A stretch of DNA of 49,405 bases from an uncultured Lachnospiraceae bacterium (GTDB lineage Bacteria > Bacillota > Clostridia > Lachnospirales > Lachnospiraceae), in assembly GCA_947165275.1 (NCBI GenBank), contig CAMUZQ010000009.1:1-49405 (forward strand). Reading direction: 5' to 3'. Shown here piece after piece: positions 12-46,004 of this stretch; within the stretch, counting starts at the first letter, position 1, and each line of letters starts with the position of its first letter. Below the pieces are notes generated by a model. It was not told the origin of the DNA, did not search any database, and saw nothing but the letters and a program-made list of their open reading frames with translations. The position numbers were made by a program, and so were the translations under genes.

Positions 12-58
12 AAAATGAGCCCTTTGGCTCATTTTGAGCCCCGTTTAGGAGCGCCATG
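12..58. repeat. 47-bp hairpin repeat, copy 1
   Basis: First of two 47-bp direct copies that differ at a single base (46/47 identical). Each copy contains a perfect inverted repeat, AAAATGAGCC (12-21) and GGCTCATTTT (26-35), around a CTTT loop, then a GAGCCCC stretch and a common end reading GGAGCGCCATG. The copies are 63 bp apart start to start. No open reading frame of note covers them. They look like an intergenic palindromic repeat family. The 3' end has no T-run, so this is not an ordinary terminator. Confidence 0.8.
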
Positions 59-140: not shown

Positions 141-181
141 AGGCTCATTGTGTGGTATCATACCAGCATGAGCCTTTTTTT
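141..181 (+). terminator. Terminator-like hairpin overlapping a gene start
   Basis: GGCTCAT (142-148) pairs with ATGAGCC (168-174). An inner stem TGGTA (153-157)/TACCA (161-165) stacks above it, and seven T follow (175-181). This has the form of a rho-independent terminator for a gene left of the window. It also contains the possible GTG (150) and ATG (168) starts of the next gene and an extended -10 box, so it may be a composite element instead. Structure is certain; role is not. Confidence 0.5.
151..161 (+). promoter_or_regulatory. Extended -10 promoter element (TGTGGTATCAT)
   Basis: TGTGGTATCAT contains the TGn extension plus a 5/6 match to TATAAT (156-161). Transcription would start near position 168, which is the ATG of the downstream gene. 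No recognisable -35 box lies 17 bases upstream (TTATAT at 133-138). The same 11-mer occurs upstream of rplS and, as TGTGGTATAAT, upstream of addB. Confidence 0.45.
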
Positions 182-2063
182 ATTTGCAGTCGCGATCATC
201 CTGATCATTGCCGGGCATATGGTGAAATCACTCAGACAGAAGCAGTTTGCAGACTTTTATGAGGATGTGAAGCTTTCTGTCTTTAATGAAGCGCTTGCTG
301 CCGGATATATAGTCAATCTCGCGGTTCCCTTCAGGCTCGGAGATCTTTTGAGAGCCTTTGTCCTGGGACGGAAAATGAAGAACGGTTTTTCCTTCGCTTT
401 TGCGACTGTCATCGTGGACAGGATCCTTGATGTCATAGTTGTCGGCTTCATATATCTCATTCTTTTTCTGATCAGTCCGGAAAGCTCCGATGATGCGGGA
501 AGATCCGCGATCTTTTACGTGATCCTGTCACTGGCCGCCATTATCATGCTTGCAGTGGTGACATTTGCCAGGAGGAGCGTTAAGAAGATAATAAGAACCT
601 TCACGGGCATATTTAATGAAAAGATAGAGCTTACGCTCATGTTCTTCTTCTGGTCCATCATCACGGCCTTCAGGGATATAGTGATCAGGATAAACAAGAA
701 AAAGCTGCTCCTGCTCACCCTTATAATGTGGGGGCTCTATACTGCCTCGTATTACATGATCTCGCTGGTGATAACCCTGATGGGAGGAGAGGCGACCCTC
801 ATGTATGTATTCTCCTACCTTTTTTCCAGCTCGAGCATAGATAAGGGAAATCTGACAAACGCCTACACAGACGGAGTCATGGTCGTATATCTGGCCCTGT
901 CGGCGGCTGTCCTTTTCGTCATAGGGCTCATATCCTCACGCATGAATGAAAATGCCGAGGAGGATACAGCCGAAAAGACCATGATGCTGCTGCCCCAGGT
1001 GCACGAATCAGACAGGAGGAGCTTCCTTGAGAATTATTTCGAGGGCGACAGGCATGCCTATGTAAGAGGCTATCTGGAGGCGAACAGCGACATACAGATA
1101 ATAAGCGATCATTCCGCAGGTTCAAATGCCACCACCCTTCTTGCGATCAAGGACAACAGGACAATATTCAGGAAATATGTGGTAGGCGCGGATGCAGGCA
1201 AGCTTCACGACCAGGTTGAATGGATAGAGCGGCAAAAGGAAAAGCTTCCGCTTCCGGAGATCCTTTTTGAAAAAAGGGGGGAGGGCATGACTCTGTACGA
1301 CATGCCTGCAGTTACCGGGGCTACGGGGTTCTTTGAATATATCCATACAAATCCGCTGGATAATTCGGTGGAGATAATAAGTAAGGCTTTTGACCGGCTT
1401 GAGGAGGGACTGTATTCCGAAAAAGGCGGTACGGCTGCTCCGGAGTTGATAGAGGAGTATATAGAGAAGAAGATAAATAAGAATATAAGGCTGATAGAGT
1501 CCAATCACAGATGGGCAGAGCTCCTCAGATATGAAGAGGTGGTCATAAACGGGAAAAGGGTCAGGGGCTTTCCTTATCTGAAGGAGGCGCTGTCTAAGGA
1601 GAATCTGAAGAGGATATTTGCTTCGGATACGGTATCGGACATACATGGGGATATGACCGTGGAGAATATCATAACGGTTCCCCCGTCGGAGAAATACAGC
1701 GACGGGTACTACCTCATCGATCCGAATACAGGAAACATCCTGAACAGCAGGTTTATCGATTATTCAAAGCTTCTTCAGTCTCTGCATGGCGGATATGAAT
1801 TCCTTATGCGCACGGAAAGATGCAGTATAGAAGGGAATGAGATACGGTTTATGTCGGGGATATCCAGAGCCTACAGAGATCTCTACAGAGAGTACAGAAG
1901 ATACCTTGATGACAGGTTTAATGAGGCAGAGATAAAGAGTATTTATTATCATGAGATCGCAGACTGGCTGCGGCTTATGCCCTATAAGCTTGAGCATGAC
2001 GAATCAAGGGCAGCGATCTTCCTGGCAGGGATGCTGCTTTCTGCAGATGATATTTTTATTTGA
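168..2063 (+). CDS. Flippase-like (LPG synthase TM/UPF0104) and kinase-like fusion protein
   Basis: The 631-residue protein has about six hydrophobic segments in residues 1-260, with the family signature around NLAVPFRLGDLLRA typical of lysylphosphatidylglycerol-synthase TM/UPF0104 flippase-like proteins. A cytosolic domain follows (about 280-631) with phosphotransferase-like motifs: HGDMTVENI (His493 of the catalytic loop) and LIDPN (Asp518, metal site). Such kinases occur in capsule and wall-polymer loci; the substrate is unknown. The membrane part begins at what is usually the second helix of the family, so it may be shortened. GTG 150 is an alternative start with a weak AAAGG upstream; an in-frame stop at 138-140 prevents extension. 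ATG 168 is preferred because the -10 box places the mRNA start there. A separate promoter for the next operon overlaps its stop codon. Confidence 0.7.
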   Translation: MSLFLFAVAIILIIAGHMVKSLRQKQFADFYEDVKLSVFNEALAAGYIVNLAVPFRLGDLLRAFVLGRKMKNGFSFAFATVIVDRILDVIVVGFIYLILFLISPESSDDAGRSAIFYVILSLAAIIMLAVVTFARRSVKKIIRTFTGIFNEKIELTLMFFFWSIITAFRDIVIRINKKKLLLLTLIMWGLYTASYYMISLVITLMGGEATLMYVFSYLFSSSSIDKGNLTNAYTDGVMVVYLALSAAVLFVIGLISSRMNENAEEDTAEKTMMLLPQVHESDRRSFLENYFEGDRHAYVRGYLEANSDIQIISDHSAGSNATTLLAIKDNRTIFRKYVVGADAGKLHDQVEWIERQKEKLPLPEILFEKRGEGMTLYDMPAVTGATGFFEYIHTNPLDNSVEIISKAFDRLEEGLYSEKGGTAAPELIEEYIEKKINKNIRLIESNHRWAELLRYEEVVINGKRVRGFPYLKEALSKENLKRIFASDTVSDIHGDMTVENIITVPPSEKYSDGYYLIDPNTGNILNSRFIDYSKLLQSLHGGYEFLMRTERCSIEGNEIRFMSGISRAYRDLYREYRRYLDDRFNEAEIKSIYYHEIADWLRLMPYKLEHDESRAAIFLAGMLLSADDIFI

Positions 2064-2143: not shown

Positions 2144-2191
2144 TTGCATGGCCGGAGGTTTTGGATAAAAAAGAGGAGCAGCATAAATTGA
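2144..2191 (+). other. Possible short upstream ORF (15 codons)
   Basis: A strong ribosome binding site, TCCGGAGG, lies 8 bases before TTG 2144. That frame runs 15 sense codons and stops at TGA 2189-2191, overlapping the TTG start (2188) of the lipoprotein gene by two bases. A second reading from ATG 2148 gives only six codons. This may be a translational-coupling leader peptide. Nothing in the peptide is recognisable. Confidence 0.3.
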
Positions 2192-3822
2192 GAAAAAACA
2201 TTATCAAAAAGAGTGGAGCAGTCTGCATGAGTATGGTTCTTGCGACTGCTTTTTTATTTGGATGCACGGCGCCATGGAGCAGTGCAAAGGAAGGTGAGGC
2301 GACGGTGTCCGAGGATGAGGGAAAGATCCAGGTAATGGTCAGTACACCGGAGATAAAGGATCTGTCCATAAGCTCAAATTTCGCCGGAAAAATAACTGCG
2401 GAAAGCGAAGTCAAGGTAATGCCTCTGGTGGGAGGAGAGGTGATCGAGAAGAACTTCGAGGTTGGAGACCATGTAAATGAGGGAGACCTTTTGTTCAAGA
2501 TAGATGATGAGGCACTGCAGATCGCTGTAACCCAGGCGGAAGCATCGCTTACATCAGCAAAGGCCGGACTCTCCACAACCCAGGCGAATGCCGAGGCAAC
2601 CATGGCGCAGTCCAATGCAACAAGGGCGAGCGCAACAAAGTCGGTAGGAGAGATACCCTATAATGCGCAGTCGATGAATGTTTCGGTCGACACTCAATAT
2701 GTCAATAAGAGAGCTGCAAATAATTCGCTGAAGAATGCTGAGGATAAGGTTGAGATAGATGAACGCAGCCTGAGGGATTATAAGGACGCCAGGGACGCTG
2801 CAAAATCCGCAAGAGATACTGCGGAGGCTGAAATGAAGGCTACAGATCCTGAGTCTCCTGAATATGAGGCAAAAAAGGAGGCCTACGAGTCTGCCAAGAC
2901 GCTGTATGAAACGGCCAAATCCAGGGTCGAGTCCGCTGAATATACACTGGACAGCTCGAAGAGATCCGCAGATAATGCCGAGATGCAGTATGAGCTCAGC
3001 AAGGAAAACTATAATCTCTCTCAGATGCAGAGAGATAATTATAACACATACACTGTCCCCACGACTCTTTACGGCGCCTACGCCTCTGCTGTGGGAGCAA
3101 ACGCTTCGGATGTGAGCGCGGCCAATTCCATAACGACCTCTACGGCCACCGTGAAGCAGGCACAGGCCAGTCTGGCCTCAGCAAAGCTTAATCTGGAGCA
3201 TGCTACGGTTACATCCCCTGTCAGTGGCACCATCGTCGCCATAGATGTTTCACTGCACAATATGGCGAGCACACAGAACTCTGCATATACGATACTCAGC
3301 GATGATCCGTGCAAGGTCGTTTTCTATGTAGCGGAGGAAACGGTGCACAATGTGGTTCCGGGCAATGCAGCAACGATAAACAAAAACGGCAAGGATTATC
3401 CGTCAAGGATATTGAATGTTTATGATACCATCGATCCCACAACAGGTCTTTTCAAGGTAGAGGCTGTAGTCAATAACGGAATAAATGCATCGGATCTGAT
3501 CGCAGGCTCCAGTGTTACACTAAAGACTGTTACAAGAAGAAGCGAGAATGCGATGACGGTTCCGATAAATGCAGTTTATTATGACGGAGATCAGGCCTTC
3601 GTCTATATAAATGACGGAGGAAAGGGAAAGAGACTGGATGTGGTCACGGGTCTGTCTGATGATGAGAGCGTGGAGATCACGGAGGGGCTTGAGCCTGATA
3701 TGCAGGTAGTGACTACCTGGTCGGGGAGCTTAAGAGATGATGCGCCCCTTGAGATCCTTGAGGATCAGTCGGTTGAGAAGAAGGAGGCAAGAACCTCTGC
3801 AGGAGCCGGAGTAGAAGAATGA
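2188..3822 (+). CDS. RND efflux periplasmic-adaptor (MFP/HlyD-like) lipoprotein
   Basis: Membrane fusion protein that would link the RND permease to the extracytoplasmic side. Starting at TTG 2188 (AGAGGAG 9 bases upstream) it begins with a basic region and hydrophobic core ending in a lipobox, LFGC, with Cys26 as lipidation site. A barrel/lipoyl half follows (about 60-130), then an unusually long Ala/Lys/Glu-rich coiled-coil hairpin (about 130-345), the returning lipoyl half (near TSPVSGTIVAIDV), and beta-barrel and membrane-proximal domains to residue 544. TTG 2161 is a longer alternative, but GGAGG is only two bases from it. The stop overlaps the start of the RND gene (ATGA), so the two are translationally coupled. 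Such pairs occur in Gram-positive Clostridia despite the lack of an outer membrane. Confidence 0.85.
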   Translation: MRKNIIKKSGAVCMSMVLATAFLFGCTAPWSSAKEGEATVSEDEGKIQVMVSTPEIKDLSISSNFAGKITAESEVKVMPLVGGEVIEKNFEVGDHVNEGDLLFKIDDEALQIAVTQAEASLTSAKAGLSTTQANAEATMAQSNATRASATKSVGEIPYNAQSMNVSVDTQYVNKRAANNSLKNAEDKVEIDERSLRDYKDARDAAKSARDTAEAEMKATDPESPEYEAKKEAYESAKTLYETAKSRVESAEYTLDSSKRSADNAEMQYELSKENYNLSQMQRDNYNTYTVPTTLYGAYASAVGANASDVSAANSITTSTATVKQAQASLASAKLNLEHATVTSPVSGTIVAIDVSLHNMASTQNSAYTILSDDPCKVVFYVAEETVHNVVPGNAATINKNGKDYPSRILNVYDTIDPTTGLFKVEAVVNNGINASDLIAGSSVTLKTVTRRSENAMTVPINAVYYDGDQAFVYINDGGKGKRLDVVTGLSDDESVEITEGLEPDMQVVTTWSGSLRDDAPLEILEDQSVEKKEARTSAGAGVEE

Positions 3823-6800
3823 AGACAATAATAAAAGGAGTACTTGACAGACCGGTTTCAGTAATAGTCACCATATTGGCTCTTGCGGTATTTTTTGTTA
3901 CTTCCCTGACCAGCATCTCACTCAAGCTGATGCCGAATATGTCAATTCCCGTAATGGTTATCTCGGCCATATATCCCGGAGCATCTCCGGAGGAAGCGGA
4001 TGAGCTTGTGGGTGATAAACTTGCAGAAGCCTGTGAAACACTCTCGGGAATAAAGACGATCCACACCCGCTGTACTGAGGGTAATGCAGCTGTAATGCTG
4101 CAGTATGAATACGGCACCGACATGGACAAGGCCTATAATGATCTACGGGCGGCTGTCGATGCGAAGAAGCCTTCACTGCCCAAAGAGGTCAAGGATCCCA
4201 CTATACTTGAGATCGATACCAATGCCTCAGATGATATAACCCTCTCAATAACGGGGAACTCCGACGACGTGGATGTTCTTGAAATGGTAAATGATAAGAT
4301 AGTGCCTGAACTTAAAAAGATAAGTTCACTGGCTCAGACTACCGTAAAGGGAGGAGATGAAAAATATATCAGGGTTCAGGTCAAACCGGAGTATATGATG
4401 CAGTACGGCCTGGATCTGAGCGGTGTGGCGACTGCCATCTCTAATACCAACTTTTCGACGCCTACAGGAACGGCAGACTATGGAGATCAGACAATAAACA
4501 TGTCTTCACAGGTGAAATACAATGACCTCCCTCTTCTGGAGCAGGTTCCCATAACCACTTCAAAGGGCCAGATCATTCACCTGAACGACATAGCAAGTGT
4601 AAAATATGCAGTGTCTGATAAAACCTCACTCTCCAGATACAAAGGAAAAGAGGATGTAAGCGTAGGTCTCAAGAGAAAACAGTCAGGCTCCTCCGTGACG
4701 CTTTCGAGGAATGTTATGCCTGTGCTCGATGATCTGAGAGCAAAATATCCCGAGCTGAAGATAGAGGTGGTGGATGATGCTGCCGATACCATCCTGAGTA
4801 CACTTAAGGGCGTGGCAAAGACCATGGTGGAAGCTATCTTCCTTGCCATGTTCATCATATTCGTGTTTTTCGGAGATATAAAGGGTTCACTGATAGTCGG
4901 TTCCACCATGCCTATTTCCATCATGGCTACGATCATATGTATGAACCTTGCCGGCTTCGCTTTAGATGTAGTTACCATGGCGGCTCTGATAATAGCAATA
5001 GGAATGATGACTGATAATGCGGTTGTTGTAATAGAGATGTGTTTCAGGCGCCACCAGGCAGGTCTTTCATTTAAGGAGGCCGCATATGAGGGAACCCGTA
5101 TAGTGGTCAATGCCGTAATCGGCTCCACCATAACAACGGTGGTCGTGTATGTCCCCCTTGCCACTATGGAGGGACTGTCGGGACAGATGTTCAAGCCTCT
5201 GGGATTCACCATCATCTTTGCTCTGCTTGCCTCCCTTATATCGGCAATAACTCTGATACCTCTCTGCTTTTCGGCATATAAGCCTGTTGAGCACAGAGAG
5301 ATCATTACCAACAGGATACTGAAGTGGCTTTCAAAACGCTACAGGAGGATTCTGAGATTTGCTCTCAAATGGAAGAAAAGCGTATTTTTGGGAGCTGTCC
5401 TGCTGCTGGCATTGACCGGATATCTTGCCACGATGCTTAAGACGGAGCTGTATTCCGGAACAGATGAAGGAGTAGTGGATGTCAGCATCACTTTCAGGCC
5501 GAATCTTGATATAGCTGCAATGGATGATACCGTAAAGGGGGTAGAGGCCTTTATAGATTCAACAGGGGTAATCAAGAATTATTCCACGAGGATCGAAAGA
5601 GACGAGGCTGCTGCCAGTATAAGCGCGTATAAAAATGATGAGACCAAGCTTACCACACAGGAAATAGTAGATGACTGGAATCTCGAACTTAGAAATTTTT
5701 CTCCAATATGTGAGGTAGAGGTTTCCCAAGGCTCCTCCACGGGAATGGGATCCATGTCACAATCCAGTACCCAGACCTATGACGTTACGGCAGATAATCT
5801 TGATAAGCTGAAAAAGAGCTCCGCAGAACTCCAGAAGAAAATGGAGGAGGTCGAAGGCGTACTGTATGTGACCTCAGAATTTGCAAACTCCGGAGCCAAG
5901 GCGGATGTGGTGATTGACCCGGTGCTTGCACAGGCGAAGGGCTTCTCGGCCAAACAGCTTGCAGGACTTGTCTATAACAATATGTCCGGAGTCAAGGCAA
6001 CGGATATAAAGATAGATAATAAAAAATATGAGGTTTCGGTGAGATATCCAAAGGGATACTACGAGACAATAAGCGACGTAGAGGAAATGACCTTCACAAA
6101 TTCAAACGGGGTGTCTGTGCCATTAAGCGAGGTGGGAAGCGTCAGATTCGAATCGGCGCCCCAGATGGTTTACAGGCAGGACGGACTGTATTCGGATGAG
6201 CTTATAGCTACCATGACGGCTGAAACCAGGGATGATGTGGTTGAAGTACTGGATGAGGTAGTAGACAAGGCCATAGAGGAAGATCCGGATCTTAATTATC
6301 TTCAGGATTCCATGAGCAGAATGATGAATGAAGAGTTTACCGCCATAGCAAAAGCCATATTCATTGCAGTATTCATGGTGTTCTTCGTGATGGCGGTGCA
6401 GTTCGAATCCATAGCGAATGCACTGCTCATAATGCTTTGTGTACCCTTTGCAGGGATCGGTTCGATCCTTTTCATGCTGGTAATGGGGATCAAGGTATCC
6501 ATGGTATCCCTTATGGGAGTATTGATGCTGGCCGGTATCGTCGTTAATAATGGTATCATTCTCCTTGATATGACAATACAGAATCAGGATTCGGGAATGG
6601 ATACCGTAGAGGCTCTGGTGGATGCAGGAAGCGGAAGACTCAGGCCAATCCTTATGACTACCCTGACAACTGTGATAGCGATGATACCTGTCGCTCTGGG
6701 GCTTTCAAAGGATGCAATGGCCATGCAGGGAATGGCAGCTGTAATAGTCGGTGGCCTGACGGCTTCCACAATGCTCACTCTGGTGCTGCTTCCTACATTC

Positions 6801-7916
6801 TATCTGCTGATGGACAGATTTAAGGTGAAGAGCGCGAGGTGGCGGGAGAAAAGAAGGGTGGCTCTGGAGGCAAAGGTTGCAGAGCAGGAGAAGATCCTTA
6901 AGGATCAGGAAGTAGAGGATGCCAGGGTCAATCTTGTATTTCCCATGGCAGGGGCAGGCACGAGATTTCTGGATAACGGCTTTGACTGTCCCAAGCCTCT
7001 TATAGACCTTAATGGAGAGCCTTTCTTCAAGAGAGCGGCGGATTCTCTCCTCGGTCATGTGAACTGTGAGAGGATGGTCTTTGTGGTCCTTAAGGAGCAT
7101 ATCGAGAAATTCGGCATAGATGCAAAGATACGTGAATACTATCCTGATGCAAAGATAGTAAGCCTGAAAAAGGTGCTTCCCGGCGCGCTTATGACGGCAA
7201 TGGAGGGAGCAAAAGCCATACATAACGAGTATCCTGTCATTTTCACGGACTGTGATCTGGTATTCAGCTCAGAGTCTCTGTATGGGTTTTATAATAAAGA
7301 CGATTATGACTGCGCCGGCACACTCCTGACCTTTAAGTCCGACCTTGACAGATACAGCTATGTGGAGACTGAGGAGTGGACAGACAAGAACGGCAATACC
7401 GTAAATATTGCAAAGACCACTGCGGAGAAGAAGGTGATAAGCGAGAGGGCCATCACAGGCGCCTACGGCTTCATCAACACCTCGGTATTCCTCAGATCAG
7501 CCGAGAAGTATATCAGGAACTGTCCTTATGATGAGTGCTTCATGAGCGGCGTATATAACGAAATGATAGCTCAGGGCATGAGAATAAGGGTATTTGATTC
7601 GGATATGCATATTTCCTTCGGTACGCCGGACGAGTATGAGGCAGCGAAAAAGCTGCTGGCAGAAGCGTCTGAGGAGAAGAGGGATACGACTGATGAGGCA
7701 GAGCCGGAGGAAAAAAACGGAACAGAGCCTGATAAACTGAACGCAGATAATAACGAAGAGCAGAAGACAGAGCAGAAGACAGAAAAGAAGACAGAGCAGA
7801 AGACAGAAAAGAAGGCAGAGCAGAAGACAGAAAAGAAGACAGAACAGAAGGCAGAAAAGAAGACAGAAAAGAAGGCGGATAAGAAGGCAGAAAAGAAAGC
7901 AGAGAAGAATGAGTAG
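3819..7916 (+). CDS. RND permease fused to a sugar-phosphate nucleotidyltransferase domain and repeat tail
   Basis: Residues 1 to about 1010 form a complete RND permease: first TM helix, two large extracytoplasmic loops, and TM4 motif IGMMTDNAVVVIEM, in which the first of the AcrB Asp pair is kept and the second is Asn, as in many Gram-positive RND pumps; the TM10 motif is GIVVNNGIILLD. After the last TM helix a charged helical linker (about 1010-1035) leads without a stop into a nucleotidyltransferase domain (about 1036-1280). Its signature FPMAGAGTRF is at 1041-1050, followed by CPKPLIDLNGEPF with Lys1059. No in-frame ATG/GTG/TTG with a ribosome site separates the parts. The fused domain would be cytosolic. 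Residues 1314-1365 are 13 tetrapeptide repeats. Each domain is recognisable; the joint function and substrate are unknown. Confidence 0.85.
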   Translation: MKTIIKGVLDRPVSVIVTILALAVFFVTSLTSISLKLMPNMSIPVMVISAIYPGASPEEADELVGDKLAEACETLSGIKTIHTRCTEGNAAVMLQYEYGTDMDKAYNDLRAAVDAKKPSLPKEVKDPTILEIDTNASDDITLSITGNSDDVDVLEMVNDKIVPELKKISSLAQTTVKGGDEKYIRVQVKPEYMMQYGLDLSGVATAISNTNFSTPTGTADYGDQTINMSSQVKYNDLPLLEQVPITTSKGQIIHLNDIASVKYAVSDKTSLSRYKGKEDVSVGLKRKQSGSSVTLSRNVMPVLDDLRAKYPELKIEVVDDAADTILSTLKGVAKTMVEAIFLAMFIIFVFFGDIKGSLIVGSTMPISIMATIICMNLAGFALDVVTMAALIIAIGMMTDNAVVVIEMCFRRHQAGLSFKEAAYEGTRIVVNAVIGSTITTVVVYVPLATMEGLSGQMFKPLGFTIIFALLASLISAITLIPLCFSAYKPVEHREIITNRILKWLSKRYRRILRFALKWKKSVFLGAVLLLALTGYLATMLKTELYSGTDEGVVDVSITFRPNLDIAAMDDTVKGVEAFIDSTGVIKNYSTRIERDEAAASISAYKNDETKLTTQEIVDDWNLELRNFSPICEVEVSQGSSTGMGSMSQSSTQTYDVTADNLDKLKKSSAELQKKMEEVEGVLYVTSEFANSGAKADVVIDPVLAQAKGFSAKQLAGLVYNNMSGVKATDIKIDNKKYEVSVRYPKGYYETISDVEEMTFTNSNGVSVPLSEVGSVRFESAPQMVYRQDGLYSDELIATMTAETRDDVVEVLDEVVDKAIEEDPDLNYLQDSMSRMMNEEFTAIAKAIFIAVFMVFFVMAVQFESIANALLIMLCVPFAGIGSILFMLVMGIKVSMVSLMGVLMLAGIVVNNGIILLDMTIQNQDSGMDTVEALVDAGSGRLRPILMTTLTTVIAMIPVALGLSKDAMAMQGMAAVIVGGLTASTMLTLVLLPTFYLLMDRFKVKSARWREKRRVALEAKVAEQEKILKDQEVEDARVNLVFPMAGAGTRFLDNGFDCPKPLIDLNGEPFFKRAADSLLGHVNCERMVFVVLKEHIEKFGIDAKIREYYPDAKIVSLKKVLPGALMTAMEGAKAIHNEYPVIFTDCDLVFSSESLYGFYNKDDYDCAGTLLTFKSDLDRYSYVETEEWTDKNGNTVNIAKTTAEKKVISERAITGAYGFINTSVFLRSAEKYIRNCPYDECFMSGVYNEMIAQGMRIRVFDSDMHISFGTPDEYEAAKKLLAEASEEKRDTTDEAEPEEKNGTEPDKLNADNNEEQKTEQKTEKKTEQKTEKKAEQKTEKKTEQKAEKKTEKKADKKAEKKAEKNE
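7758..7913 (+). repeat. Coding tandem repeat, 13 units of 12 bp
   Basis: Thirteen consecutive 12-bp units encode tetrapeptides of the form E-(Q/K)-K-(T/A), with one starting in Asp and the last reading EKNE. They end directly at the TAG stop. The unit is a multiple of three, so copy-number change would lengthen or shorten the tail without a frameshift. Glu and Lys placed i to i+4 favour a single charged helix. Confidence 0.9.
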
Positions 7917-7924
7917 GGGCTCTT

Positions 7925-9544
7925 ATGAATAGCAGGAATTCAGGCAGGGCAATGATAATAAATAAAAACGGACTGATCTATAAGCTGGGCCTGAATTTTG
8001 CTGTCTTTCTTGTCGTCACTCTGATCATTTCCGGGGTTATGACATATTTAAGCCAGATGGCCATCTATAAAGACCAGTGCGGAAGGAATATAAAAAGTGT
8101 CGTGAATTATCTTTCTGCGCTTATCAAGGCTTCAGACAAGGAATTCCTCCAGTATAAAAGGTATTATGATGAGCATTATACCGAGGTTGATATTCCATAT
8201 GATGCAAACGAATACATAAGCTACAGGGATGAATATGAGGAACTTTTTGCAAAGCATCATCCGGGGAAGACACTTGGGAAGGATATAAGCTTTGAAGAGC
8301 TTGATGAGGAGGTCAGGCGTGCATGGTTTATTTACATGCATCTGTACTGGCTTCTGACCTTTGAGCAGGCCAGGGCCAGCTTCAATATACCTTATACCTA
8401 TGTGATCATTCCGGATGAGACTGAATATACTGTTGTATATATGCTCGATGCGGTGAGACAGAACCGGGAGGAGCATAATCAATTCATCAGAGAGCATCCC
8501 GAGTATAAGGCGCTGGATCATTATCAGGGTGATGAGAAGGAATATATGTATCTCGGGGATGAATTTGTAAATCCCTATGAGGACGGACCGGTCCTTTGGG
8601 AGACATGGGAGAAGGGAGAGGCCCAGGAGGGTTATAAGATCTGGCATAATCAATGGGGTGATACCTATGCTTATTATGCTCCCATTTGGGCAGACGGGGA
8701 AAAGGTGGGCCTTGCCGGAGCGGAGATCGATATCGCCGATGTCAATGAGGAGATCATCAGGAATACACTCAGACAGCTGGCTGTCATAGCCATTGTTCTC
8801 ACGGCCTGTCTTGCAGTGGCCATATTGTTCATAAACAGGAAATATATATCCAAGCTCATACGGCTGGAAAACAGCGTAAAGGAATATACAGCCTCAAAGG
8901 ATGCGTCCGTCGTGAGGGATATTGACAGATATGCGAAGGGAAAGGATGAGATAGCTTCCCTGTCCGGAGAGATATCCTCAATGATCCTCGAAATGGAGAA
9001 TTATCTTAAATCCATCACAAAGATGGATGCGGCATTGACTGATGAAAAGCTTAATTCGGCCAGAATGACCGAGCTCGCCCAGCGGGATTCCCTGACAGGG
9101 ATCAGAAATGCAAAGGCGTATGAGCTGGAGATAATGAGGCTTGAGCAGGAAATGAAGGACGGACTGAAGGACTTCGGTATTGCCATGGTCGACCTTGTCT
9201 ATCTGAAGGGTATAAATGATACCTATGGCCATGAGCAGGGAAACCGGGCGCTGCAGAAGCTTTCCTATATCGTATGCCATGTATTCCAGCATTCGCCTGT
9301 TTTTCGGATAGGCGGAGATGAGTTTGCAGTGATACTTAAAGAGCATGATCTCGAGCACAGGGAGGAGCTTACGGACAGCTTCAGGAAATGGCTTGAGCAG
9401 CTGAATTCGGATAAAAGCCTTGAGCCATGGGAGATGATCTCGGCGGCGATAGGAGTTGCCATATATGATGAGACAGGCGATACTGATGTGGATAGTGTGA
9501 AAAAGAGAGCGGAAAAGCTCATGTATGAAGACAGAAGGCATTAA
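7925..9544 (+). CDS. Membrane diguanylate cyclase with extracellular Cache-like sensor (GGDEF)
   Basis: Makes cyclic di-GMP from two GTP. The 539-residue protein has TM helix 1 (about 25-45), an extracytoplasmic sensor of about 240 residues ending in a Cache-like strand pattern (YAYYAPIWADGEKVGLAGAE), TM helix 2 (about 286-305), a HAMP-like linker and a GGDEF domain (about 395-539). The active-site motif GGDEF is intact at 463-467, and INDTYGH, typical of the family, precedes it. It begins eight bases after the RND fusion stop, so it is probably in the same operon and may sense the substrate or effect of that transporter. An alternative start is ATG 7952. No RxxD inhibitory site was identified with certainty. 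Confidence 0.85.
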   Translation: MNSRNSGRAMIINKNGLIYKLGLNFAVFLVVTLIISGVMTYLSQMAIYKDQCGRNIKSVVNYLSALIKASDKEFLQYKRYYDEHYTEVDIPYDANEYISYRDEYEELFAKHHPGKTLGKDISFEELDEEVRRAWFIYMHLYWLLTFEQARASFNIPYTYVIIPDETEYTVVYMLDAVRQNREEHNQFIREHPEYKALDHYQGDEKEYMYLGDEFVNPYEDGPVLWETWEKGEAQEGYKIWHNQWGDTYAYYAPIWADGEKVGLAGAEIDIADVNEEIIRNTLRQLAVIAIVLTACLAVAILFINRKYISKLIRLENSVKEYTASKDASVVRDIDRYAKGKDEIASLSGEISSMILEMENYLKSITKMDAALTDEKLNSARMTELAQRDSLTGIRNAKAYELEIMRLEQEMKDGLKDFGIAMVDLVYLKGINDTYGHEQGNRALQKLSYIVCHVFQHSPVFRIGGDEFAVILKEHDLEHREELTDSFRKWLEQLNSDKSLEPWEMISAAIGVAIYDETGDTDVDSVKKRAEKLMYEDRRH

Positions 9545-36545: not shown

Positions 36546-38648
36546 GTGCAGGCAAGCTTAAGGAAGTGGTTCGGCTCTGACAATCCGATCGACGTTATAA
36601 ATTTCAATATAGGGATGGTCTTTATATACATCTCCTGTCTGACAGCATTTGCAAGCTCAATATACCTGCATATGAACAGAGAGTTCTATTATGTTCTGGG
36701 GATCGGCATAGTTTTGATCTCGTTTTTTATCGGCTATGCCGGCCAAAGCGGCAGATATCAGGTGGCCTGCTTTGCTGTTGTTATTCTGCTGGATTTTATC
36801 ATTTTCCCGGGAGCCTATGCTTCAGACGGCCGGTTCATGTCCTTCATTCTGATATATTATTTTCTTGGATTTCTTCTGACAGTCTTTGTTCAGGACGGCA
36901 TATACCGGCGGATCTCCTATGCCATATTCCTGCTGTCGTGGATACTGTCAGTCACACTGGCATATTTTCATGCAGTAAAAACGGGCGTTTCTTTATTCTC
37001 CGGGATGAATATCCTGATCGACGTGATAATACCCATGATCATATGCGGATCGTTTTCGTTATGTTCGATACTTGCTTCATTAAGGTACTACAAGGTGGAG
37101 AGCGCAAAGGCGGAGAAAAGCCGGAGAGCCGCGGATGAAACGGAAAAGTCCAAGGATATGTTCCTGATGAACATGTCTCATGAGATCAGGACTCCCATGA
37201 ATGCCATCATGAGTGCCGGAGAGATCCTGCTCTCGAAGGATATCTCATTCGATACCAGACAGAATGTACATCATATCACAAATGCCTGCAGGGCCCTTAT
37301 ATCCACGCTTGATGATCTGCTTGTCTTTTCGAAGACAGATGACAGGAATATAGTGATGCAGGAGTCTGAATACGATCTTACGAATTTGCTGGATGATGTG
37401 ATCAATATGATCTCGGTAAGGCTCATGGGAAGCGATGTCAGGCTTTATGTTTATATCGATCCCTATATTCCCAGGCGTCTTTACGGTGATATGGTGAGGG
37501 TGAGGCAGGTATTCATCAACATCCTGAATAATGCCGTAAAGTACACCAAAAAAGGTCATATCATCCTCCGTGTCGTAATGAGTGATGTGATGAAGGACAG
37601 TATCATGATGCATGCGGATGTCATAGACACCGGCATCGGTATAAAGAAAGAGATGCTGCCGAATCTGTTTGATGATTTCCAGAGGGTTGAGGACAATATG
37701 AATGAGAGCCTCAAGATAGAGGGCTCCGGACTCGGCCTTTCGATCACAAAGAGCATAGTCGAATCCTGCGGTGGAAGTATAAGTGTTGAAAGTGAATACA
37801 ATAAGGGCTCTGTTTTTTCCTTTGACATTCCCCAGAAGATATCCGATGCCGGCCCGGTTGCCCGGGTTGAGACATTTAAGGAGCTCGGTGTGATAGTCTG
37901 CGATGATGATGCCCAGATGAAGGAGATATTAATGGATACGCTGAAGGCCATGAAGATCCGCTGCACGATAGTCTCAAACAGCGGGGAGATGAGCCGTGCG
38001 ATCGGAGAAGGTGTTTATACCCATCTTTTCATCACCCCTGAATGCCTGGAGGGTTCGTGTGATCTTCCCGCATTGATGGGGGCAAACATAACTATCGTTG
38101 TGATGAGAAATGTCGATGACCCCGAGGATGATCTCGGAGACGGAAAGATCGTTAAACCCTTAAGCTGTCTTAATATAGCCCGGTATTTTGAAAATGAAAC
38201 GAATGAGACAGGGACGGTTTCTGAGCCTGAAGCCGAAAAAAGCGGAGAAGGCCTGATAGTGAAGGGTGCCAGAGCCCTGGTGGTTGAGGATAATATGACA
38301 AACCTTATGGTAGCGGAGCGGCTGCTGACCAGGATGGGGTTTGAGGTTTCCACGGCAAACAGCGGAAACAGTGCATTGAGCCTTACGAAGGTCATGCGCT
38401 TCGATATCGTTTTCATAGATTATATGATGACAGGAATGAACGGCGTGGATACCCTCAGACAGCTCAGAAAGCTGCCGTTTGAGTGGACCGGGACGGTTCC
38501 CTGCATAGTTCTTACTGCGGATGCCCATGAGGGCGCGAAGCAGATGCTGATAAACGCCGGATTTGATGATTATCTTGCAAAGCCTATAGACATGGAGGAG
38601 CTGGACTATATGGTCAGGCGATATTTAACGGAGGATAAACTGATCTGA
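36546..38648 (+). CDS. Hybrid histidine kinase with membrane sensor and two receivers
   Basis: 700 residues: about six TM helices (20-185), a short coil, HisKA with phospho-His212 (MSHEIRTPMNA), a complete HATPase (N box NILNNAVKYT about 322-331; DTGIGI; GSGLGLSI about 394), then two receivers. The first (about 443-545) keeps the acidic DDD pocket and IVKPL, but has no Asp at the phosphoacceptor position (HLFITPECL). The second (about 577-695) is complete with Asp625 and AKPID. Start GTG 36546 has AAGGCGG upstream. Its TGA overlaps the next ATG. Confidence 0.92.
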   Translation: MQASLRKWFGSDNPIDVINFNIGMVFIYISCLTAFASSIYLHMNREFYYVLGIGIVLISFFIGYAGQSGRYQVACFAVVILLDFIIFPGAYASDGRFMSFILIYYFLGFLLTVFVQDGIYRRISYAIFLLSWILSVTLAYFHAVKTGVSLFSGMNILIDVIIPMIICGSFSLCSILASLRYYKVESAKAEKSRRAADETEKSKDMFLMNMSHEIRTPMNAIMSAGEILLSKDISFDTRQNVHHITNACRALISTLDDLLVFSKTDDRNIVMQESEYDLTNLLDDVINMISVRLMGSDVRLYVYIDPYIPRRLYGDMVRVRQVFINILNNAVKYTKKGHIILRVVMSDVMKDSIMMHADVIDTGIGIKKEMLPNLFDDFQRVEDNMNESLKIEGSGLGLSITKSIVESCGGSISVESEYNKGSVFSFDIPQKISDAGPVARVETFKELGVIVCDDDAQMKEILMDTLKAMKIRCTIVSNSGEMSRAIGEGVYTHLFITPECLEGSCDLPALMGANITIVVMRNVDDPEDDLGDGKIVKPLSCLNIARYFENETNETGTVSEPEAEKSGEGLIVKGARALVVEDNMTNLMVAERLLTRMGFEVSTANSGNSALSLTKVMRFDIVFIDYMMTGMNGVDTLRQLRKLPFEWTGTVPCIVLTADAHEGAKQMLINAGFDDYLAKPIDMEELDYMVRRYLTEDKLI

Positions 38649-40771
38649 TGCAGAAGCTGAAGCTTAAGATCCTGAATGAGGTCTTCTATAATGAAAGCAT
38701 AAAGCTTGAGGTAAGGCTTCTGCGGCTTGTTGCCTTATATTCCGTAGCTGCTGTGATACTGGCAGTACCCTGCTTTATGACAGCGGGGTATGATATATCT
38801 GTCTATATCGCGGCGGGTATATCCCTGCTGCTTCTGGCAGGCGTGTTTGGCATATATATTTATACAAAAGATGTAAGGCTTGTTTCTTTATTATTCTGCT
38901 ATGTGATCAATCTCATCATCCTGCCGCTCCTGTTTCTCTATACCGGCGGTGTCTACGGCGGGATAGAGTTTCTCTTCCTTTGCGGACTTGTAGACGGGCT
39001 TTTCCTGCTTCACGGTCCGGCAAAGCTTGTTTCAGAGGCGCTTTTTTCCGTCTGGTACACAGTCATAGTGATCTATACCGGATACAGACCTGAAATGATA
39101 AGAAACGTGCCTGAGGGCGGAGTTGTCGTTTTCAGTATGGCGGTGTGCATCACCTTCAGTACATTCATTTTCCTGATCATCATGGATTATGAGAGGTATC
39201 TGCTTAATGCCAAGCGGGCAAATGTGGAGGAAGCGGTACGGCTCAGTACAAAAAGCGCGGAAACGAAGAGCCGGTTTCTCTCAAATGTGTCCCATGAGCT
39301 GCGCACACCGATGAATGCCGTTATCGGCATGAGCGGCATAATACAGAATTCCGATATCAATGGTGATCTTACCGAGGAGATATCGATAATAACCCATAAT
39401 GCAAGGGATCTGCTTTCCACGATAAACAGCATACTGGATTATTCGAGACTGGAATCCGATAAGCTCACACTGTCCTATGACCAGTTTGAGCTTGATACCA
39501 TGCTGCGCGAGATAGTGAGCGAGGCTGCTATCGGGACTGAGGAGAAGGGCGTGGACCTTTTTATAGACATCGATCCGGACAGTCCGAATGTTCTCTACGG
39601 AGATCATATACAGATCGGGATGATACTGCAGGATCTTATTCATGATGCGATCGATTCGGTGACTGACGGAAGGGTTTATTTCAAGATACGCGGACATTAT
39701 TCAAAGGATAAGAGCAGGGCCTTTTTCAGGGCTGAGATCTCTGATACCGGGGAGGGTATCTCGGAGGCGGATCTGGCTACGATATATTCAAGCTTTGAAA
39801 CATATGATTCCAGACAGGACAGCAGGATCAAGAGGCTGGGACTCAAATATTCCGTATTCAGGGGAATACTGAAGCTTATGAACGGAGATTTTGAGATAAG
39901 GAGCTTAAAGAACGTCGGAACGACAATATCGGTTTCCTTTGAGGTATTTACAGTCGAGAGGATCGTGCTGGCTGACAGTATGTTTACGGTGGGAAAGCGT
40001 GTGCTGCTCTATGCTTACGGGGAAAAGGGAGCATCCTACATGGAAGAGGCCTTCATACCCTTTGGAGTGCTGCTTGATGTGGCTTACAGTCCCGATGTTT
40101 TTGCCAAGATGTATAAGGCAGGCGGATACAGATATATATTCATATCGGAAGAGGGCTTCGAGGATGTGGCGGATATGATAAAGGAGCAGGACAGACCCCT
40201 GGTTTACGTGATCACGGACAGGATGGGCACGCCTGCGGACTTTGACAATCTGAGGATCATCAGAAGACCTGTATCCTCTCTTAATCTTTCGGATGTTTTC
40301 TTTGAAAGATGGGAGGATATGGATTATTCCGGAAGCAGGACGGCAGACGGGTTCATTGCGCCTGATGCCAGAGTTCTTGTTGTGGATGACAATATGGTCA
40401 ATCTTAAGGTGGCAGAGTCGCTGCTGGCAAAATACAAGGTCGGGATACGTATCTGTGAGAGCGGCTTCAGCGCGATAGAAATGCTTAAAAATGATAACTT
40501 TGATATTGTCCTCATGGATCAGGTAATGCCCGGAATGGACGGATTTGAGGCAATGAAGCTGATAAGGAGCAGTCTGGTCATCCGGGGCGCGAGACGTATG
40601 CCCATAGTCTGTATGACGGCTGATTCCGGAGGCGATATCAGGGACAAGGTATTGAATGCCGGGTTTAATGATTATCTTTCCAAGCCTGTCAAGGAGACTG
40701 AGCTTGAACGTGTTCTCCTTACCTATCTCCCGGATGACAAGATAAGGATGCCTGTAGCCGATGCAGTATGA
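38648..40771 (+). CDS. Hybrid histidine kinase paralogue with degenerate ATPase site
   Basis: 707 residues, same layout as the preceding gene: TM region (20-185), HisKA with His216 (VSHELRTPMNA), HATPase, receiver 1 (about 435-545), receiver 2 (about 575-695; Asp624, SKPV). The HATPase is degenerate: both N-box Asn positions are Asp (Asp329, Asp333; DLIHDAID), and the G2 box is RLGLKY (396-401) instead of GxGLGL, while DTGEGI remains. Receiver 1 has no acidic pair and Ser at the phosphoacceptor position. It may be a pseudokinase that accepts phosphate or pairs with its neighbour. Confidence 0.9.
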   Translation: MQKLKLKILNEVFYNESIKLEVRLLRLVALYSVAAVILAVPCFMTAGYDISVYIAAGISLLLLAGVFGIYIYTKDVRLVSLLFCYVINLIILPLLFLYTGGVYGGIEFLFLCGLVDGLFLLHGPAKLVSEALFSVWYTVIVIYTGYRPEMIRNVPEGGVVVFSMAVCITFSTFIFLIIMDYERYLLNAKRANVEEAVRLSTKSAETKSRFLSNVSHELRTPMNAVIGMSGIIQNSDINGDLTEEISIITHNARDLLSTINSILDYSRLESDKLTLSYDQFELDTMLREIVSEAAIGTEEKGVDLFIDIDPDSPNVLYGDHIQIGMILQDLIHDAIDSVTDGRVYFKIRGHYSKDKSRAFFRAEISDTGEGISEADLATIYSSFETYDSRQDSRIKRLGLKYSVFRGILKLMNGDFEIRSLKNVGTTISVSFEVFTVERIVLADSMFTVGKRVLLYAYGEKGASYMEEAFIPFGVLLDVAYSPDVFAKMYKAGGYRYIFISEEGFEDVADMIKEQDRPLVYVITDRMGTPADFDNLRIIRRPVSSLNLSDVFFERWEDMDYSGSRTADGFIAPDARVLVVDDNMVNLKVAESLLAKYKVGIRICESGFSAIEMLKNDNFDIVLMDQVMPGMDGFEAMKLIRSSLVIRGARRMPIVCMTADSGGDIRDKVLNAGFNDYLSKPVKETELERVLLTYLPDDKIRMPVADAV

Positions 40772-44678: not shown

Positions 44679-45929
44679 TCAGTGCAGCATAGCTTCCGGA
44701 CGGCAATGGAATATATGTGACAGGGAAATGATCTTTTCAGCCGCGGCCCGGTTGATATTCTTACTGCCTGTTTCGTATTGCTGCAGGGTTCTTAAATTTA
44801 TGCCTGACGCTTCGGCGAGCTCTCTTTGAGAGAGGCCGAAGCGTTTTCTGTATGTCTGGAGACTGGTGGAGTCGGATATTCTGCTTTTAAGCCTGCTGTC
44901 GACGGCATCTGAGGCCTCTTTGAAGGTCAGGGTATGTAATTCGGGGTAAAGGGCAAAAAGACGGCTGTATGACAGCGAGGACAGTATATTCGCAAAGGAG
45001 GAGCCCTTGTACCACTGATGGCAGACAAGCATTGCTCCGCACCAATAGGCAACCGCAGAATCCGGGCCTTCTTCATATCCTGGGTCTTCGTCAGGCTCTA
45101 TACCGCAGGAGAGGAGTATCCTCTGACATAGCTCATGATATTCGGTCCCGAGCAGTATGGAAGGATCCCCGTTTTCGAAACGGCCGGCATAGCCGCTTAC
45201 AATGAAGCATTTCAGGAAGAGCTCCGGGGTAAGATACGGGAGGGACGACCTGAGTCCTGAAATATAACGGACAGACCTGCCCAGGAGGGCAGAGGCATAT
45301 TTAAGATAGGTCTTCGGATAAGGGGCCATGGGATCAGAGGCAGAAGAGGGGAGCAGAAGCCCGGCAGCCTGCTTCTCCTTCATCAGTCTCGCGGAATAAT
45401 AAAACATGCCGTCGACCGCCTCGGAGGAGATATATTCCAGACTGTTTAAGGCCTTTTCGGTACGCAGTACAAGCTGTTCTCCAAGTCCTGCTCTTTCTAT
45501 CAGCCGGGACAGCTCATCCTTTTCGATCTTTTCCTCTATGAAGGCTTTGCAGTATATGAGATTGGCATCATCTGCCCTGCTGCCTTTTATGATATCTGCA
45601 TCAGAGATTTCGGGCAGGTATCTTCTGATAATGCTTTCGGCATTGCTCCTGCAGACTGCAGAATCAAAAACGAACCCGCGTTCCTTAAGTATAAGTGCAA
45701 GCCAGTTCAGGACGGAATATTCCCCGCTGCTCAGATCGATGATATTCAGATCCTCTGTTTCGAGCTCATATATATTTACGAAACCGCCGTTTATGTCCAT
45801 GGCGGCCCAGTCTCTGACAAGCTCTTCGTTTTCTGTGGCATAGAAGCCGTCTCCAAAGTCCCTTATCACGTTTTTATGACCTGAAAACGGCATTGTGACG
45901 ATTTTTTTTGACCCGTGGTATACTCTCAT
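44679..45929 (-). CDS. DUF3990 (ADP-ribosyltransferase-like) protein with C-terminal HTH
   Basis: 416 residues from ATG 45929, where GAGGA precedes; the longer reading frame to 46004 would run through the promoter. The N-terminal part (1-105) matches DUF3990 with VYHGSKKIV and DFGDGFYATENEELVRDWA, then VNIYELE; this family is thought to have an ADP-ribosyltransferase-like fold. Residues about 110-350 are helical and unrecognised. The last 60 form a Cro/C1-type HTH (LSQRELAEASGINLRTLQQYE). The combination suggests a self-regulating toxin-like or signalling protein. Its promoter carries a matching inverted repeat. No separate antitoxin gene is seen. Confidence 0.75.
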   Translation of the reverse strand: MRVYHGSKKIVTMPFSGHKNVIRDFGDGFYATENEELVRDWAAMDINGGFVNIYELETEDLNIIDLSSGEYSVLNWLALILKERGFVFDSAVCRSNAESIIRRYLPEISDADIIKGSRADDANLIYCKAFIEEKIEKDELSRLIERAGLGEQLVLRTEKALNSLEYISSEAVDGMFYYSARLMKEKQAAGLLLPSSASDPMAPYPKTYLKYASALLGRSVRYISGLRSSLPYLTPELFLKCFIVSGYAGRFENGDPSILLGTEYHELCQRILLSCGIEPDEDPGYEEGPDSAVAYWCGAMLVCHQWYKGSSFANILSSLSYSRLFALYPELHTLTFKEASDAVDSRLKSRISDSTSLQTYRKRFGLSQRELAEASGINLRTLQQYETGSKNINRAAAEKIISLSHIFHCRPEAMLH

Positions 45930-45948
45930 AAGTCCTCGCTGATAAAAA

Positions 45949-45959
45949 TATACTTCTTT
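45949..45959. promoter_or_regulatory. Third operator half-site
   Basis: TATACTTCTTT, identical (in inverted orientation) to the AAAGAAGTATA arm at 45987-45997. It lies in the leader of the DUF3990-HTH gene, between the predicted transcription start and the ATG. Probably an accessory binding site for the same regulator. Confidence 0.5.
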
Positions 45960-45975
45960 AGACGTACTTTTGAGC

Positions 45976-46004
45976 ATTATACTTCCAAAGAAGTATAATG
46001 TCAA
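45976..46004 (-). promoter_or_regulatory. Consensus promoter with palindromic operator in the spacer
   Basis: On the minus strand a perfect TTGACA (46004-45999), 17 bases, and a perfect TATAAT (45981-45976). The spacer and -10 box form an inverted repeat: ATTATACTTC (45976-45985), CAAA, GAAGTATAAT (45990-45999). A repressor bound here would block RNA polymerase fully. The HTH of the adjacent gene is the natural candidate. Confidence 0.85.

What the first reader, a model, noticed from the sequence alone, without database searches (positions are those of the whole stretch)
3819..7916. RND permease fused in frame to a sugar-phosphate nucleotidyltransferase
One uninterrupted frame encodes a whole RND pump, a charged helical linker, a nucleotidyltransferase with an intact signature (FPMAGAGTRF, then CPKPLIDLNGEPF) and a repeat tail. 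The RND C-terminus is cytosolic, so topology fits. I know of no described RND transporter carrying a nucleotide-sugar-type synthetase. It could couple activation of a small molecule to export of the product.
Basis: partly seen in the sequence, partly recalled or inferred. Interest (0 to 1): 0.87.

Follow-up and report, generated by a model that had tools for sequence, protein, structure and literature searches.

The report
RND pump fused to nucleotidyltransferase
In one clade of gut bacteria of ruminants a membrane export pump carries, as a lasting tail on its inner side, an enzyme of a kind that activates small molecules such as sugars; the fusion is real and old, but what the joining is for has not been shown.

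Summary
ORF 3819-7916 (+) encodes one 1365-residue protein: a full ACR_tran RND permease (residues 5-998), a charged 39-residue linker, a nucleotidyltransferase (NTase, 1037-1279) and a Lys/Glu repeat tail. It is not a sequencing error: 11 of 48 held genomes of the genus have it in one open frame, the linker is 39 residues in all 11, and the fused permeases form one clade (100/100). In 24 genomes of the genus the parts lie on different contigs. No match spanning both parts was listed for 297 genomes of other genera of the family. Ten of 11 NTase domains keep 31-32 of 33 family residues; G365 keeps 18 but stays in frame.

Of 56 unfused NTase loci, 28 have a kinase gene nearby, 18 of these fused to an LPG_synthase_TM domain (motif count). 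That membrane-kinase gene stands before the adaptor (MFP) and RND-NTase genes in all 8 fusion loci that reach it. So MFP-RND apparently entered a kinase-NTase operon. Tethering of the NTase at the membrane is my preferred reading; coupling to export is untested.

The parts
168..2063 (+). Membrane-kinase gene: LPG_synthase_TM (flippase-like) N-terminal domain fused to an APH-like small-molecule kinase domain (about 972-2060). ORF listed from GTG 150; the in-frame ATG at 168 matches the first residues of the G139 orthologue.
   Evidence: PF03706 E 1.8e-16; kinase motifs HGD-x-T-x-ENI and DPN invariant in 23 of 23 rows (kinase label from these motifs, no Pfam kinase match for the window's domain); upstream of MFP-RND-NTase in 8 of 8 fusion loci that reach it
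2161..3822 (+). Membrane fusion (adaptor) protein, HlyD family, 553 aa; reads as a lipoprotein (LFGC)
   Evidence: PF13437 E 1.4e-13; overlaps the RND start by 4 bases
3819..7916 (+). RND-NTase fusion protein, 1365 aa
3819..6809 (+). RND (AcrB/AcrD/AcrF-type) permease domain, residues 1-997
   Evidence: PF00873 E 9e-177; PDB MdtB 9lyq E 2.2e-79
6810..6926 (+). Charged linker, 39 residues, same length in 11 of 11 fusions
6927..7655 (+). Nucleotidyltransferase domain, residues 1037-1279
7656..7913 (+). Low-complexity Lys/Glu tail, 86 residues; 9-113 residues and not conserved in the other fusions
7925..9544 (+). GGDEF-domain protein, 8 bases downstream; next gene after the fusion in 6 of the 10 fusion loci whose downstream side is held
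   Evidence: PF00990 E 2e-25

Best explanation
The gene encodes one bifunctional membrane protein: an RND exporter working with the adaptor encoded just upstream, and, on its cytosolic C-terminus, an NTase with an intact signature. SHOWN by sequence: the fusion arose once as far as the trees tell, has no ordinary way to make the NTase separately in 6 of 11 genes, and is conserved; the NTase family is otherwise encoded beside small-molecule kinases in about half of the loci seen, often with an HAD phosphatase, and here a kinase fused to a membrane (flippase-like) domain stands in the same gene row. INFERRED: the kinase phosphorylates a small molecule X (sugar or polyol), the HAD enzyme trims a phosphate, and the NTase makes NDP-X for a surface glycan or glycolipid. 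The MFP-RND pair entered this operon between kinase and NTase, and the NTase became joined to the RND tail. Its present use is most likely tethering: it keeps the NTase at the membrane, beside the membrane-bound kinase and in fixed ratio to the pump. Whether the pump moves a product of this pathway is open.
For: One open frame in 11 of 48 genomes of the genus. Fused RNDs form one 100/100 clade with two contig-cut members (32 rows), fused NTases one 100/99 clade with one contig-cut member (34 rows). Linker 39 residues in 11 of 11; mean pN/pS 0.27-0.38 for the NTase in 10 of 11 (G365 0.41) and 0.28-0.36 for the RND. No start codon remains at the old NTase start in 11 of 11, and 6 of 11 have no in-frame ATG/GTG/TTG anywhere in the linker. 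Ten of 11 keep 31-32 of 33 residues invariant in 46 stand-alone relatives. Of 56 unfused loci, 28 have a kinase within 4 genes (18 of the LPG_TM type) and 17 an HAD gene. LPG_TM-kinase stands upstream of MFP in 8 of 8 fusion loci that reach it and in 0 of 11 wide unfused RND loci. HAD follows the fusion directly in G005.
Against: No biochemical evidence for substrate, nucleotide or activity; no structure. G365 has lost catalytic residues while its RND is ordinary, so catalysis by the tail is not needed for the pump there. The HAD gene is next to the fusion in 1 of 10 loci with a known downstream side; the window genome's closest HAD homologue (45%) is on another contig. The other half of the unfused NTase loci (28 of 56) showed no kinase by my motifs, and 11 stand directly before a radical SAM gene instead. 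RND and NTase trees place G000 and G365 differently within the clade, with modest support. Insertion without any gain in function would leave much the same trace. Synonymous sites are near saturation, so pN/pS is rough.
Confidence: 0.5

Rival explanations
1. Neutral by-product: MFP-RND inserted into a kinase-NTase operon, the RND stop codon was lost, and two independent functions now travel on one chain with no benefit from the joining.
For: Wide loci of unfused RND genes do not hold the kinase gene (0 of 11); the nearest unfused RND in the tree (G034) already has a charged tail like the linker; G365 lost NTase motifs with an ordinary RND.
Against: No unfused member in the clade of 13 RND rows (11 fused, 2 cut by contig ends; the tree held 32 RNDs, not one from each of the 48 genomes), although mean pairwise identity is down to 60-68% in the RND and 47-67% in the NTase. 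Constant 39-residue linker. G365 keeps the frame where a neutral simulation left no stop in 0.3% or 5.5% of 1000 runs.
Confidence: 0.33
2. The fused domain is a sensor: it binds a nucleotide or phosphosugar in the cytosol and gates the pump, and catalysis is secondary or lost.
For: G365 candidate pseudo-enzyme domain kept in frame with the RND; a GGDEF-domain protein is the next gene in 6 of 10 fusion loci.
Against: Ten of 11 keep the signature; the kinase with its catalytic motifs stays in the gene row.
Confidence: 0.12
3. Synthetase-exporter coupling: the NTase makes or activates the very substrate that the RND exports.
For: The fusion itself, its cytosolic side by homology, and the kinase in the same gene row.
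Against: Nothing found links the pump's cargo to NDP-sugars; NDP-sugars are not typical RND substrates (recalled); the NTase family elsewhere is encoded away from RND genes of this kind (56 unfused loci of the scan).
Confidence: 0.1
4. Assembly or sequencing artefact.
For: Most of the assemblies are metagenome bins (titles).
Against: The same open fusion in 11 assemblies of different species.
Confidence: 0.01

Closest known systems
AcrB/MdtB-type RND permeases (Pfam ACR_tran)
   Same: Full-length match, 12 hydrophobic segments, adaptor gene directly upstream
   Different: Carries a C-terminal enzyme domain; TM4 reads T-D-N and TM10 V-N-N-G where AcrB has Asp-Asp and Lys (AcrB residues recalled); where my motifs caught them, unfused relatives read the same or V-D-N in TM4
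NDP-sugar pyrophosphorylase of the 4evw type (Pfam NTP_transferase / NTP_transf_3)
   Same: Signature stretch, G-x-P-x-E near the end; profile E 4.7e-27 to 4evw
   Different: Fused to a pump; 4evw itself lacks the D-C-D at the aligned place (alignment); I know of no assigned substrate for 4evw or for this family
Kinase / HAD phosphatase / nucleotidyltransferase sets such as HddA-GmhB-HddC for GDP-heptose
   Same: The same three enzyme types encoded together; hddA, gmhA and hddC are named for a capsule locus in PMC10918830 (passages); GmhB recalled
   Different: Kinase with APH-like motifs and an LPG_synthase_TM domain; the NTase scores only 20.3 bits against the HddC model (cut-off 300)
CDP-6-D-glucitol pathway cytidylyltransferase HS5.18 of Campylobacter (PMC10918830, passages)
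   Same: Nucleotidyltransferase of a surface-polysaccharide pathway
   Different: Given there a PF01128 identifier and a reductase partner; no kinase partner or pump in the passages seen

Membership tests
RND permease (ACR_tran) | Full-length ACR_tran domain | tested here: met
   PF00873 residues 5-998, profile 2-1020 of 1021, 590 bits
RND permease (ACR_tran) | Twelve TM helices, N- and C-terminus in the cytosol | tested here: inconclusive
   Hydropathy scan gives 14 peaks, two of them overlapping pairs, hence 12 segments; sides by homology and the net positive linker; no structure obtained
RND permease (ACR_tran) | Membrane fusion partner | tested here: met
   HlyD-family ORF 2161-3822 directly upstream
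RND permease (ACR_tran) | Outer-membrane factor of the TolC type | tested here: inconclusive
   PF02321 has one match in the genome, 23.2 bits, just over the cut-off of 22, over 75 of 187 positions in a 690-residue frame; not followed up
AcrB-like proton antiporter (narrow sense) | Asp-Asp in TM4 and Lys in TM10 | tested here: not met
   T-D-N and V-N-N-G by motif reading; AcrB reference residues recalled. I file it as an RND permease, not as an AcrB-type drug/proton antiporter
Sugar-phosphate-type nucleotidyltransferase | Fold-family signature and D-x-D | tested here: met
   32 of 33 residues invariant in 46 stand-alone relatives kept in the window protein; the window protein itself is under the Pfam cut-offs, stand-alone L035 passes PF00483
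Sugar-phosphate-type nucleotidyltransferase | NTP-dependent transfer to a phosphorylated sugar or polyol | not testable with these tools
   needs an enzyme assay
Kinase-NTase-HAD activation module | Kinase gene in the same gene row | tested here: met
   window 168-2063; 8 of 8 fusion loci that reach it
Kinase-NTase-HAD activation module | HAD phosphatase in the same gene row | tested here: not met
   not beside the window fusion; nearest homologue G000:C21:32733-33281; directly after the fusion in G005

The most novel reading that the evidence does not exclude
A membrane synthesis-and-export machine: membrane-bound kinase and pump-borne NTase form one assembly with the adaptor, so that activation of a small molecule is coupled physically to the work of an RND exporter, with a degenerate NTase in one lineage turned into a regulatory domain of the pump.
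Probability: 0.12. Interest if true: 0.85.

Novelty: new variant of a known kind. Interest (0 to 1): 0.56.

Why it matters
A clade in which an AcrB-type permease lastingly carries an NTP-using enzyme domain, beside a kinase bound to a membrane domain, gives a testable case of biosynthesis anchored to an exporter, and a handle on what RND-MFP pairs do in Lachnospiraceae. Even if the joining is only tethering, the fusion and its neighbours draw attention to a widespread and, to my knowledge, uncharacterised kinase-NTase-HAD set.

Tried and rejected
Sequencing error or lost stop: rejected, 11 of 48 genomes. Remnant of an RND upstream of the stand-alone NTase of G034, suggested by the match starting at query residue 943: rejected, I saw no RND frame in that stretch. 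CDP-alcohol phosphatidyltransferase as the third gene: a guess from its size, wrong; two examples tested by Pfam are HAD phosphatases. Internal start that would also release a free NTase: not conserved. TolC-type partner: one PF02321 match just over the cut-off (23.2 bits), left open. PDB search with the kinase profile: nothing up to E 0.1.

Literature: nine searches of open-access PubMed Central listed no paper whose title or abstract start tells of an RND-nucleotidyltransferase fusion. I saw listings only, plus three passages of PMC8277102 (only its first 300,000 characters are held) and twelve of PMC10918830. Most subscription journals are missing, so this is weak evidence of novelty.

Limits of my counts: the invariant list came from an alignment that held nine fused rows and the cut L074 besides the window's, so I use, where 46 stand-alone rows define it; G365 was aligned to it automatically. 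rests on simple motifs, drops 3 of 68 loci without a recognised NTase ORF (L122, L131, L134), counts the contig-cut L074 as unfused, and misses cases (the APH kinase of L118). The nine fused named loci (L071-L073, L075-L078, L080, L088) appear to be the same assemblies as nine of the G genomes (equal contig lengths), so they are not further cases.
Full report
The observation. ORF 3819-7916 on the + strand is a single frame of 1365 codons from ATG. Pfam finds a full ACR_tran domain at residues 5-998 (E 9e-177) and, in the C-terminal part, NTP_transf_3 at 1044-1154 (24.7 bits) and IspD at 1038-1098 (21.3 bits), both under the cut-off of 27. A profile of the C-terminal family matches the solved nucleotidyltransferase 4evw nearly end to end (E 4.7e-27). 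The anatomy is RND 3819-6809, linker 6810-6926, NTase 6927-7655, tail 7656-7913; the tail holds a 12-bp tandem repeat.

Not an artefact. A search of all 48 held genomes of the genus with the junction region gave one open frame across RND and NTase in 11: G000 (this genome), G022, G139, G002, G023, G018, G024, G020, G005, G033 and G365. In the last two the RND start is cut off by the contig end. In 24 further genomes the RND and NTase matches lie on different contigs; in one of these, G008, only half of the NTase is held. The other 13 have no close NTase match; in three of them (G021, G035, G366) the RND match runs into a contig end. The named-contig scan shows the fused hosts to be Lachnospiraceae, several from goat, reindeer and other ruminant samples; one is AC3007 (L071). 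In 299 genomes of the family, about one per genus, the only spanning matches listed are those of this genus, G000 and G139. In the order, 28 of 392 genomes have an NTase match at E 1e-15 and only G000 and G139 show a frame over 1000 codons.

Age and constraint. In a tree of 32 RND domains the 11 fused and two cut ones form a clade with 100/100 support; the nearest unfused one is G034 (92/90). The tree did not hold an RND from each of the 48 genomes. The fused NTases, with the cut one of G033:C143, form a 100/99 clade whose sister group is five stand-alone NTases of the genus. Inside the clade the two trees place G000 and G365 differently, with modest support. The linker is exactly 39 residues in all 11, though only 38-59% identical on average; the tail is not conserved (9-113 residues). 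pN/pS averages 0.27-0.38 in the NTase of 10 genomes, 0.41 in G365, and 0.28-0.36 in the RND; synonymous sites are near saturation, so these are rough. No start codon remains at the old NTase start in any of the 11, and 6 of 11 have no in-frame ATG, GTG or TTG in the linker. The only start codon shared by all 11 near the junction is the Met at codon +6 of the NTase, in the signature stretch.

One exception. In G365 the fused NTase keeps 18 of 33 family-invariant residues and has lost the glycine-rich signature, while its RND is ordinary. The frame is still open through the 235 codons of this domain. A simple neutral simulation left no stop in 0.3% or 5.5% of 1000 runs, depending on how much divergence is taken as neutral. 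This hints at a kept fold and is the main evidence for a non-catalytic role. It rests on one 3.8-kb contig of an assembly of about 440 contigs.

What the NTase does elsewhere. Of 68 loci of the scan, 65 hold a recognised NTase ORF: 9 fused, 56 not. Of the 56, 18 have the LPG_synthase_TM-kinase gene within four genes, 10 another gene with APH-type kinase motifs, 17 a small HAD gene (motif count). The other 28 showed no kinase by these motifs; 11 of them stand directly before a gene that fits the radical SAM/SPASM protein identified in L035. In many Bacilli and Clostridia bins the order is NTase, LPG_TM-kinase, HAD; in L110 a family-2 glycosyltransferase precedes them (Pfam). In a Bacteriovoracaceae bin the order is HAD, LPG_TM-kinase, NTase (L132), and in one Prochlorococcus record a 684-residue ORF matches both NTase and kinase weakly (L136). 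The kinase domain keeps HGD-x-T-x-ENI and DPN in 23 of 23 rows, the window's included, though the window's kinase domain gets no Pfam kinase match.

What the fusion locus looks like. In the 8 fusion loci whose sequence reaches that far, the LPG_TM-kinase gene stands directly before MFP and RND-NTase (window, G020, G022, G005, G024, G023, G018, G139; in G018 only its kinase end is on the contig); it also does in the cut locus of G035. None of 11 wide loci of unfused RNDs, 12.6-18.5 kb each, has it. In G012 the same kind of kinase gene lies directly before the stand-alone NTase, and in G007 the order is kinase, HAD, NTase. The simplest history is that the MFP-RND pair entered a kinase-NTase operon and the NTase was joined to the RND tail. 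The linker resembles the C-terminal tail of the nearest unfused RND. The kinases of the fusion loci form one 100/100 clade, but its relation to the kinases of G007 and G012 is not resolved. Downstream, 6 of 10 fusion loci have the GGDEF gene next, 2 a gene of 827-831 residues, 1 the HAD gene, 1 other genes; in G024 the contig ends.

Mechanism. Shown: one polypeptide, full-length pump, NTase signature intact in 10 of 11, a membrane-kinase gene in the same row. Inferred from family knowledge: kinase makes X-phosphate, NTase makes NDP-X, HAD removes a phosphate, and NDP-X feeds a surface glycan or glycolipid, in the manner of the heptose pathway whose kinase and NTase are named in PMC10918830 (passages). 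The best use I can propose for the fusion is tethering of the NTase beside the membrane-bound kinase. Direct coupling to export has no evidence beyond the fusion and the gene row. The TM4 and TM10 residues differ from those recalled for AcrB, so I do not assume a proton-driven drug pump.

Limits. No structure could be predicted because the queue stayed full. Substrate, nucleotide and pump cargo are unknown. Most of the named fused genomes are metagenome bins. Literature coverage is open access only.

Noticed in passing
L144:3-3362 (G365:C261): Fused NTase with lost glycine-rich signature (18 of 33 family residues kept) yet open frame: a candidate pseudo-enzyme domain on an RND pump.
   Followed up: partly
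window 12-35 and 75-98: Perfect hairpin AAAATGAGCC-CTTT-GGCTCATTTT repeated twice at the contig's start; with one mismatch allowed, these are its only two places in the held genome.
   Followed up: partly
window 7925-9544: GGDEF-domain gene as next gene after the fusion in 6 of 10 fusion loci; a possible c-di-GMP link to this operon.
   Followed up: no
window 44679-46004 (-): DUF3990 domain fused to a helix-turn-helix domain.
   Followed up: no
window 36546-40771: Two adjacent hybrid histidine kinases, each with a receiver domain, overlapping by one base.
   Followed up: no
L035:4386-5375 (-) and similar loci: Stand-alone NTases of other members of the genus sit directly before a 329-residue radical SAM/SPASM protein (Pfam on L035; 11 loci by a crude length and motif criterion).
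   Followed up: no
L136 (Prochlorococcus record): One 684-residue ORF matches NTase and the kinase domain weakly (25% and 19%), a possible direct fusion of the two enzymes.
   Followed up: no
L049/L074 (G033:C143:1-4105): G033 holds a second NTase of the fused clade at a contig edge, followed by HAD and GGDEF genes; whether it is fused cannot be seen.
   Followed up: partly
L054:6938-8628 (-) (G002:C58): The MFP gene beside the G002 fusion is split into two overlapping ORFs: frameshift or assembly error.
   Followed up: no
L142:8222-8779 (-) (G000:C21): The window genome's HAD homologue overlaps by 4 bases a 541-residue gene without Pfam match and lies next to ORFs that read like sugar-catabolism genes (labels from reading).
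   Followed up: no
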